Below are positions 61,921 to 64,000 of a stretch of DNA of 64,000 nt, piece by piece (position 1 is the first letter of the stretch; each line of letters begins with the position of its first letter). The notes below the pieces were generated by a model that did not search any database, was not told where the DNA came from, and saw only the letters and a program-made list of their open reading frames with translations. A program made the position numbers and the translations under genes. Origin of the DNA: Burkholderia sp. USMB20 (lineage in GTDB: Bacteria > Pseudomonadota > Gammaproteobacteria > Burkholderiales > Burkholderiaceae); contig NZ_JTAN02000012.1 of assembly GCF_000949135.2 (NCBI RefSeq), positions 248,001-312,000 of the forward strand, read 5' to 3'.

Positions 61921-62412
61921 ATGATCGGACGAATCACCGGCGGGGCGCGTGCGGCGCCCGTCATCGGGCTGCTGGCTGGACTCGCCGGATGCAGCGACCT
62001 TCACGTGCTCGATCCGAAGGGCGCGGTGGGCGTCGCGGAAAAATCGCTGATCGCGACAGCGACGTGGGCAATGCTGATCGTCGTCATTCCGGTGATCCTG
62101 CTCACGCTGTGGTTCGCATGGCGCTACCGCGCATCGAACCGCAACGCCGCCTACGCGCCGAACTGGTCGCACTCGACCGCGATCGAGGTCGTGATCTGGA
62201 CGGTGCCGACGCTGATCATCCTGTTCCTCGGCGTGCTCACGTGGCGGACGACGCACGAGCTCGACCCGTACAAGCCGATCGAATCGTCGGTCAAGCCGAT
62301 CAATGTCGAGGTCGTCGCGCTCGACTGGAAGTGGCTGTTCATCTATCCGGAACTCGGCATCGCGTCGGTGAACCAGCTCGCGATTCCGGTCGGCACGCGA
62401 TGCCGGGGCTGA
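61921..62412 (+). CDS. cyoA: Cytochrome bo3 ubiquinol oxidase subunit II, truncated
   Basis: The first 160 residues are a normal CyoA start: lipoprotein signal (LLAGLAGC), two membrane helices (TWAMLIVVIPVILLTLWFAW and VVIWTVPTLIILFLGVLT) and the opening of the periplasmic domain (VEVVALDWKWLFIYPELGIA). After PVGTR the sequence jumps to ABC-permease DNA and the frame stops five codons later at 62412. A full CyoA is about 300 residues; the rest of the cupredoxin-like domain is missing here. cyoA sequence reappears at 63958. As read, this copy cannot make a working subunit. Confidence 0.85.
   Translation: MIGRITGGARAAPVIGLLAGLAGCSDLHVLDPKGAVGVAEKSLIATATWAMLIVVIPVILLTLWFAWRYRASNRNAAYAPNWSHSTAIEVVIWTVPTLIILFLGVLTWRTTHELDPYKPIESSVKPINVEVVALDWKWLFIYPELGIASVNQLAIPVGTRCRG
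62322..62364 (+). repeat. Direct repeat, left copy (inside cyoA)
   Basis: This 43-bp stretch, coding DWKWLFIYPELGIA, is identical to 63958-64000. The copies are 1636 bp apart and in the same orientation; the right copy is cut only by the window edge, so the true repeat may reach about 78 bp (to the junction at 62399). Confidence 0.95.
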
Positions 62413-63581
62413 TCTGGAACATGATGATGTCGATGTCGGGCGGCTGGTTCTTCGTCGTCGCGTCGGAGGCGATCACCGTCGGCAACCAGACCATCACGCT
62501 GCCGGGCATCGGCGCGTATCTCGCGCAGGCGATCTCGGACAAGAACCTTGGCGCGATCGGCTGGGTGATCCTGACGATGACGGTCGTGATCCTCGCGTAC
62601 GACCAGTTCCTGTTCCGCCCGCTGATCGCATGGGCCGACAAGTTCCGGATGGAGAACACCGCATCGGGCGATGCGCCGCAATCCTGGCTGCTCGACCTCG
62701 TGCGCCGCACGCGCCTGATTCACCAGCTGCTCGTGCCGGCCGGCTGGTTCTTCGCGAAGGCGGCGCGGATTCCGCTGCGCCTGCCGCTGTCGGGCGCAAT
62801 GCGCTTCTCGCTGCCGAAGGTCGAGAAGAAGGCATCGCGCACGGTCGACATCGCATGGGCGGCGCTCTTGCTGCTCGGCACGGCCTATATCGTGTGGCGC
62901 GTCGTCAGCTTCGTGTCGACCGGCGTGACGATGGGGGAGGTCGGGCACGTTGTCGCGCTCGGGCTCATCACGCTGCTGCGCGTGGTCGTGCTGATCTCGA
63001 TCGCGTCGGTGATCTGGGTGCCGATCGGCGTGTGGGTCGGGCTGCGCCCGAAGCTGGCCGAGAAGCTGCAGCCGCTCGCGCAGTTCCTTGCCGCGTTCCC
63101 GGCGAACCTGCTGTTCCCGGTGTTCGTGATCGTGATCGCGCGCTTCCACCTGAACCCCGACATCTGGCTGTCGCCGCTGATCGTGCTCGGCACGCAGTGG
63201 TATATCCTGTTCAACGTGATCGCGGGCGCCACGTCCTATCCGAACGACTATCGCGAAGCCGCGACGAACTTCCGGATCCGCGGCTGGCAGTGGTGGCGCC
63301 AGGCGATCCTGCCCGGCATCTTCCCGTACTACGTGACCGGCGCGATCACCGCATCCGGCGGCGCGTGGAACGCGAGCATCGTGTCGGAAGCGGTGCAGTG
63401 GGGCTCGACCAAGATCGAGGCGCACGGCCTCGGCGCGTATATCGCGCAGACCACCGCCGCCGGCGACTTTCCGAAGATCATCCTGGGCATCGCCGTGATG
63501 TCCCTGTTCGTCACCCTGTTCAACCGCCTGCTGTGGCGCCCGCTGTATGCCTTCGCCGAAGCGAAGCTGCGGCTCGACTGA
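62400..63581 (+). CDS. ABC transporter permease, N-terminally truncated (two-domain type)
   Basis: From the junction on, the sequence encodes the latter part of a large binding-protein-dependent permease. MPGLIWNMMMSMSGGWFFVV is the middle of a first permease domain rather than a start; a linker with SLPKVEKKASRT and a complete second domain follow, with the EAA-type loop EAATNFRIRGWQWWRQAILP near residue 290. This layout fits the fused permeases of nitrate/sulfonate/bicarbonate-type transporters, about 570 residues long; 393 remain. There is an ATG at 62400 but no ribosome binding site. The ATPase gene follows after 22 bp. Confidence 0.82.
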   Translation: MPGLIWNMMMSMSGGWFFVVASEAITVGNQTITLPGIGAYLAQAISDKNLGAIGWVILTMTVVILAYDQFLFRPLIAWADKFRMENTASGDAPQSWLLDLVRRTRLIHQLLVPAGWFFAKAARIPLRLPLSGAMRFSLPKVEKKASRTVDIAWAALLLLGTAYIVWRVVSFVSTGVTMGEVGHVVALGLITLLRVVVLISIASVIWVPIGVWVGLRPKLAEKLQPLAQFLAAFPANLLFPVFVIVIARFHLNPDIWLSPLIVLGTQWYILFNVIAGATSYPNDYREAATNFRIRGWQWWRQAILPGIFPYYVTGAITASGGAWNASIVSEAVQWGSTKIEAHGLGAYIAQTTAAGDFPKIILGIAVMSLFVTLFNRLLWRPLYAFAEAKLRLD

Positions 63582-63603
63582 GACCGATTGAGAGCGAAAC
63601 GCG

Positions 63604-64000
63604 ATGCACAATCCGAATGCTGTAAACGCCCCCGTCCAGACGTCCCAGCCGCCGCGCCTCGGTGAGGAAATCCTGCGCGTCGATCACGTCTGCCGCGGCT
63701 TCAACAAGACGCAGGGCGAGTTGCTGGTGCTCGACGACGCGAACCTGTCGCTGCGCGAGGGCGAGATCGTCGGGCTGCTCGGCCGTTCGGGCTCGGGCAA
63801 GTCGACGCTGCTGCGGATCATCGCCGGGCTGATCGAGCCGACCGGCGGTGACGTGACCTATCTCGGCAAGCCGCTGCGCGGCCCGGCCGAAGGCGTCGCG
63901 ATGGTGTTCCAGACCTTCGCGCTGTTTCCGTGGCTGACCGTGCTGCAGAACGTGGAGCGACTGGAAGTGGCTGTTCATCTATCCGGAACTCGGCATCGCG
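63604..64000 (+). CDS. ABC transporter ATP-binding protein, 5' part, broken at a junction
   Basis: An ATPase of the nitrate/taurine type: Walker A GRSGSGKSTLLRIIAG near residue 60 and the Q-loop VFQTFALFPWLTVLQNVE near 100-118. At 63957 the sequence switches to cyoA DNA in a different frame (ERLEVAVHLSGT..), and no stop occurs before the window ends. The ABC signature and Walker B are therefore missing here. It belongs with the permease fragment just upstream. Confidence 0.82.
   Translation, partial: MHNPNAVNAPVQTSQPPRLGEEILRVDHVCRGFNKTQGELLVLDDANLSLREGEIVGLLGRSGSGKSTLLRIIAGLIEPTGGDVTYLGKPLRGPAEGVAMVFQTFALFPWLTVLQNVERLEVAVHLSGTRHR
63958..64000 (+). repeat. Direct repeat, right copy (cyoA sequence after the ATPase fragment)
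   Basis: Exact copy of 62322-62364, joined to ATPase coding sequence and running off the window. It shows that the flanking order is cyoA - ABC fragment - cyoA. Confidence 0.95.

What the first reader, a model, noticed from the sequence alone, without database searches (positions are those of the whole stretch)
62322..64000. cyoA split by an ABC-transporter fragment with a long exact direct repeat
Seen: cyoA runs to about 62399, then 1.56 kb of ABC permease and ATPase sequence follows, then cyoA sequence resumes from an earlier point, with 43 bp identical (62322-62364 and 63958-64000) and still matching at the window edge. The unit length is 1636 bp. This fits a tandem duplication/amplification of a cyoA-ABC unit, or an insertion with a target duplication of up to 78 bp. 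It equally fits a chimeric assembly joining two loci. If real, bo3 oxidase and a transporter are both broken, or a hybrid amplification is ongoing.
Basis: partly seen in the sequence, partly recalled or inferred. Interest (0 to 1): 0.8.

Follow-up and report, generated by a model that had tools for sequence, protein, structure and literature searches.

The report
Likely assembly chimera, two Burkholderia loci
The last 1.6 kb of this Burkholderia window stitch a piece of a transporter operon into a respiratory-oxidase gene; most likely this is a sequence-assembly error at duplicated genes rather than a real mutation, although only the raw reads can settle it.

Summary
cyoA runs from 61921 to 62398, then 1559 bp of an ABC permease/ATPase operon follow (62399-63957), then 43 bp identical to 62322-62364 run to the window edge. 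The window aligns in one piece to a relative's chromosome from base 10 to exactly 62398; only the last 1.6 kb depart from it. Neither junction was found in 65 genus genomes. The junctions share at most 1 bp, and the insert carries no mobile-element gene. Both partners have a similar second copy in relatives (86-91% over 3-4 kb). The transporter fragment is a recurrent contig-break zone: 8 of 36 draft relatives end contigs inside it, against 0 of 36 in a longer single-copy control stretch. The right-hand 43 bp are identical in both cyoA copies of relative G001, so a tandem duplication of this cyoA is not shown. I judge an assembly or library chimera most likely (about 0.72); a private templated insertion is the main rival (about 0.2). 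The window's own assembly is not held and no reads are available, so this is not settled.

The parts
61921..62398 (+). 5' part of cyoA (quinol oxidase subunit II), 159 codons; the reading frame runs into foreign sequence and stops at 62412
   Evidence: TIGR01433 CyoA E 4e-67, below its curated cut-off; 97% to G010, 94% to G001; two orthologues give 296 aa; stop at 62412
62322..62398 (+). cyoA stretch whose first 43 bp are seen again at 63958-64000; implied doubled length 77 bp
   Evidence: 77/77 matches to both cyoA copies of G011
62398..62399 (.). junction 1, cyoA to ABC permease; 1 bp shared (C)
   Evidence: not found in 65 genus genomes at up to 3 mismatches
62399..63957 (+). 1559-bp internal fragment of an ABC transporter operon
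   Evidence: 96% to G001:C23 and 87% to its paralogue G001:C1
62400..63581 (+). 3' part of an ABC permease gene (NtrB/TauC-like), 393 codons and stop; its 5' part is missing here
   Evidence: PF00528; TIGR01183 and PRK10160 below their cut-offs
63604..63957 (+). 5' part of the ABC ATPase gene, 118 codons, cut just after the Q-loop region (motif recalled)
   Evidence: PF00005
63957..63958 (.). junction 2, ABC ATPase to cyoA; no shared base seen
   Evidence: not found in 65 genus genomes at up to 3 mismatches
63958..64000 (+). cyoA sequence again, 43/43 identical to 62322-62364, cut by the window edge; from this cyoA or from the second cyoA copy

Best explanation
The arrangement is most likely an artefact. 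Contig ends or molecules from two duplicated loci, a cyo operon and an ABC (NtrB/TauC-like) operon, were joined head to tail when the genome was assembled or the library was made. The likely trigger is that each of these genes has a similar second copy in the same genome, with long exact words in common. De Bruijn assemblers cut contigs there and leave ends that overlap by exactly k bases (recalled). A short ABC piece was then placed between two cyoA ends that overlap by about 77 bp. Shown here: the junction anatomy, second copies in relatives, the contig-break zone, and exact shared words at relatives' contig ends. Inferred: that the same happened in this assembly.
For: Colinearity with a two-contig relative (G010) holds from window base 10 to 62398 in one alignment and fails only in the last 1.6 kb. 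Each junction has 0 hits in 65 genus genomes at up to 3 mismatches, while the two halves are found in 62 and 65 of 65. Of 36 draft genomes in the set, 8 end contigs inside the 1.56-kb ABC fragment, in one or both copies (G004, G014, G021, G028, G039, G047, G054, G057), against 0 of 36 inside a 4.3-kb single-copy control stretch. In the 5 genomes where both copies' contigs end at the same place, the two ends share an exact terminal word of 77, 77, 92, 119 and 125 bp; the implied doubled length here is also 77. Window 62322-62398 is an exact two-copy word in G011, and 62399-62475 in G059; 63881-63956 is 100% and 99% in the two copies of G005. In one 19.3-kb control stretch no second copy reaches 80% in 3 genomes (40 candidates scored per genome), so duplicated genes on both sides of both junctions would be unlikely for random breakpoints. 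The cyoA and ABC pieces show no decay up to the joins.
Against: No word longer than 1 bp is shared across either junction, so a simple collapsed-repeat misjoin cannot make them; a scaffolding or gap-closing step, or chimeric molecules, is needed. In 14 relatives' loci aligned, nothing suggests that identity between the two cyoA copies begins at 62322 or ends at 62398, so the match of 77 to a k value may be coincidence, and it was noticed after the fact. Only 1 of 36 drafts (G026) ends a contig inside the cyoA stretch. The cyo pair is only 86% identical overall, with exact words up to 78 bp in G001 and 56 bp in G010. No reads or coverage are available.
Confidence: 0.72

Rival explanations
1. 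A real, recent, private templated insertion. Replication of cyoA broke off at 62398, switched to the ABC operon about 330-380 kb downstream on the same strand, copied 1559 bp, and switched back 77 bp upstream of where it left, leaving a 77-bp direct duplication and a disrupted cyoA. The second cyo operon could cover its loss.
For: Two junctions with 0-1 bp of homology and a short duplicated flank fit this mechanism. Donor and recipient are on the same strand in 8 of the 8 genomes where both are on one contig. The fragment's similarity to relatives ranks as the backbone's does, Spearman 0.91 over 53 of 65 genomes, with G001 nearest in both, so it is native-like. This cyoA has a full-length match in only 13 of 65 genomes, and all 13 also have a second cyoA match, so its loss is likely tolerable.
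Against: Found in no relative searched. Both partners happen to have second copies, which this mechanism does not predict. The right copy cannot be assigned to this cyoA.
Confidence: 0.2
2. A real amplification: several copies of a 1636-bp cyoA-ABC unit in tandem.
For: The repeat spacing of 1636 bp is compatible.
Against: Only one unit is seen, its parts lie 327-380 kb apart in relatives, it contains no complete gene to select for, and both junctions must be made first.
Confidence: 0.03
3. Two real large deletions: cyoA1-ABC-cyoA2 is the chromosomal order on one strand in several relatives, so the window could be that chromosome with about 330 kb and about 350 kb removed.
For: Order and strand fit in G010, G035 and G065, and the right 43 bp fit cyoA2 of G001.
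Against: It would remove roughly 0.7 Mb of a chromosome, very likely with essential genes (inference), and would need two homology-free joins 1.6 kb apart.
Confidence: 0.02
4. Insertion of a mobile element with a long target-site duplication.
For: A direct repeat flanks the insert.
Against: The insert is an internal piece of a chromosomal operon, matching relatives end to end, with only permease and ATPase parts; a 77-bp duplication is far longer than the usual element duplications (recalled).
Confidence: 0.01

Closest known systems
Repeat-induced misassembly in bacterial draft genomes (PMC5771137; passages seen)
   Same: Breakpoints fall in duplicated genes where draft assemblies of relatives break; that paper describes breaks and false joins at genomic repeats
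   Different: Here no repeat is shared across the junction itself, so a further scaffolding or library step is needed; the paper treats Bacteroidia, mainly Porphyromonas gingivalis
Templated insertion by replicative template switching (FoSTeS/MMBIR; recalled; search listing only, where the titles and abstract openings shown are mostly about eukaryotes)
   Same: Short distant same-strand insert, near-zero microhomology, small duplicated flank
   Different: Not shown to exist in the organism; no reads
cyo operon (cytochrome bo3 quinol oxidase) and NtrB/TauC-type ABC transporter operon
   Same: Both halves look ordinary: cyoA part 94-97% and ABC part 95-96% identical to the nearest relatives
   Different: Truncated and fused here; the fusion was found in no relative searched

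Membership tests
Assembly or library chimera | Partners are separate loci in relatives | tested here: met
Assembly or library chimera | Junctions not shared by relatives | tested here: met
   0 of 65 genomes for each junction at up to 3 mismatches; junction 1 exact 50-mer has 0 matches in genome contigs, whose output says the window's own record may be left out; junction 2 was not searched there
Assembly or library chimera | Breakpoints lie in sequence where assemblies break | tested here: inconclusive
   Met for the ABC fragment: 8 of 36 drafts, control 0 of 36. Weak for cyoA: 1 of 36
Assembly or library chimera | No reads span the junctions | not testable with these tools
   No reads; own assembly not held
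Tandem duplication/amplification | Duplicated unit is contiguous in the ancestor | tested here: not met
   The two halves of the unit are 327-380 kb apart in the 8 relatives where this can be measured
Tandem duplication/amplification | Second copy derives from the same locus | tested here: inconclusive
   43-mer identical in both cyoA copies of G001
Transposon insertion with target duplication | Element ends or transposase in the insert | tested here: not met
   Insert is only permease 3' and ATPase 5'; matches the chromosomal operon end to end
Templated insertion (template switching) | Short or no microhomology and same-genome donor | tested here: inconclusive
   0-1 bp of homology is met; the donor is native-like by similarity ranking, but the own genome is not held
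Templated insertion (template switching) | Physical existence in the cell's DNA | not testable with these tools
   Needs reads

The most novel reading that the evidence does not exclude
A single replicative template-switch event in a wild Burkholderia copied 1.56 kb of an operon about 330-380 kb away into an accessory cyoA and returned 77 bp upstream: a clean bacterial templated insertion with practically no homology at either join.
Probability: 0.18. Interest if true: 0.35.

Novelty: not a real feature. Interest (0 to 1): 0.1.

Why it matters
Mostly as a warning: truncated cyoA and transporter genes in this record should not be read as gene loss or amplification without reads. The ABC operon pair is a recurrent contig-break site in Burkholderia drafts (8 of 36 here), useful to know when such genomes are annotated. 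If the arrangement proved real, it would be a well-delimited example of homology-free templated insertion in a bacterium.

Tried and rejected
Collapsed-repeat misjoin by shared words across the junctions: rejected, because at most 1 bp is shared. The exact branch-point version (identity between the two cyoA copies starting at 62322 or ending at 62398): looked for in 14 relatives' loci and not seen; 62321 and 62399 are the same base in all 14, and 62397 varies in two. So the '77 = k' argument stays suggestive. Foreign origin of the fragment: disfavoured, since G001 is nearest for fragment and backbone and the rankings agree (53 of 65 genomes used, 12 with split or truncated matches dropped). 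Plasmid records: 59 records match, in 0 does one place cover 80% of the query. tRNA genes as an insertion site: none found in the window. Literature: three searches showed nothing on this arrangement in Burkholderia in their listings; only listings were seen. A fourth led to PMC5771137, of which I saw passages only.

Two of the seven contig-end comparisons (G028, G004) set contig ends against each other that lie at different places of the fragment, so their lack of a shared end says little; the five others end at the same place. G014 has one match only and was not compared.

Contig counts are rounded in the tool output; 'draft' means 20 or more contigs (36 of 65). No positive control was run with the pattern searches. 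The NCBIfam names used (TIGR01433, TIGR01183, PRK10160) score below their curated cut-offs; the two Pfam names pass theirs.

Full report
What is there. The window is Burkholderia DNA (genus inferred). Its own assembly is not held; the nearest held genome is G001. From window base 10 to base 62398 it aligns in one piece (62,543 columns, 93.8%) to a chromosome of G010, a two-contig genome, ending exactly where cyoA breaks. It is likewise colinear with G001:C15 from 645 to 62398, apart from an indel near 36.2 kb and an unaligned stretch at 61311-61756 upstream of cyoA. At 62398 cyoA stops matching and an ABC operon begins (permease 3' part, ATPase 5' part). At 63957 the ATPase stops and 43 bp of cyoA run to the window edge. 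The 43-bp repeat is exact.

Junction anatomy. Junction 1 shares one base (C) between the two loci. At junction 2 the base at 63957 differs from cyoA; it is a synonymous variant seen in the ABC gene of some relatives such as G035, so no base is shared there. If the right copy continues as the left one does, 77 bp are doubled. Neither junction was found in 65 genus genomes at up to 3 mismatches. The exact 50-mer of junction 1 has no match in the genome-contig collection, whose output warns that the window's own record may be left out; junction 2 was not searched there.

Where the pieces normally live. A full-length match to the window's cyoA stretch occurs in 13 of 65 genomes, and 62 of 65 have some cyoA match at the limit used. 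The ABC fragment has a full or partial match in 65 of 65, in many as two copies at about 95% and about 86%. In 8 of the 13 the cyoA and ABC loci are on one contig; in those 8 they are on the same strand, 327-380 kb apart (G010, G011, G023, G035, G049, G060, G064, G065; G064 counted across the start of a record taken as circular; distances computed). The fragment is native-like: its ranking of relatives follows that of the backbone, Spearman 0.91 on 53 of 65 genomes.

Why an artefact is favoured. Both loci have a second copy in these genomes. In G001 and G010 the ABC pair is 90-91% identical over 3.1 kb, with exact words up to 191 bp (G001), and the cyo pair 86% over 3.8 kb, with exact words up to 78 bp. 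In a 19.3-kb control stretch of the window, no second copy in three genomes reaches 80%. Draft assemblies end contigs inside the ABC fragment in 8 of 36 drafts, against 0 of 36 for a 4.3-kb single-copy control stretch. In the five genomes where both copies' contigs end at the same place, the two ends share an exact terminal word, twice of 77 bp, as expected for de Bruijn contigs overlapping by k (recalled). The implied doubled cyoA stretch is also 77 bp, as if a stray contig had been placed between two contigs that overlap by k. Window 62322-62398 is an exact two-copy word in G011, and 62399-62475 in G059. A paper on other bacteria describes breaks and false joins at repeats (PMC5771137, passages).

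What speaks against an artefact. A shared-word misjoin is not possible with 1 bp of homology, so scaffolding, gap closing or chimeric molecules must be invoked. In the relatives aligned, identity between cyoA copies does not start or end exactly at the breakpoints. Only one draft of 36 breaks in cyoA. A real templated insertion would show the same joins, and this cyoA is accessory, so it could be lost. The cyoA and ABC pieces show no decay (cyoA vs G010: 8 synonymous and 4 nonsynonymous codon differences of 159; permease vs G001: 30 and 9 of 394; ATPase vs G001: 12 and 2 of 117), which fits either a very recent event or an artefact.

The right-hand copy.

Verdict. Observation confirmed; the most probable cause is an assembly or library chimera (0.72), with a private templated insertion as the main rival (0.2). 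Raw reads or the sequence beyond 64000 would decide.

Noticed in passing
61623-61745: CAGCC/TAGCC array (TRF: period 5, 23.4 copies) between the enoyl-CoA hydratase-like gene and cyoA; no such run at the same place in G001 and G010. Possibly a variable simple repeat upstream of cyoA.
   Followed up: partly
36199-36278: G001 carries about 1.5 kb here that the window lacks; content not examined.
   Followed up: no
L127-L141 (G047, G028, G057, G054, G021, G039, G014, G004): The two-copy ABC permease/ATPase operon is a recurrent contig-break site in draft genomes of the genus; in the 5 genomes where both copies' contigs end at the same place the ends share an exact word of 77-125 bp.
   Followed up: yes
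L014, L017, L044, L142 (cyo loci of G001 and G010): 21 of 65 genomes show two cyoA matches, among them all 13 with a full-length match to the window's cyoA. In 11 of these 13 that copy lies close to the enoyl-CoA hydratase-like gene; in G011 and G063 it lies about 11 kb away.
   Followed up: partly
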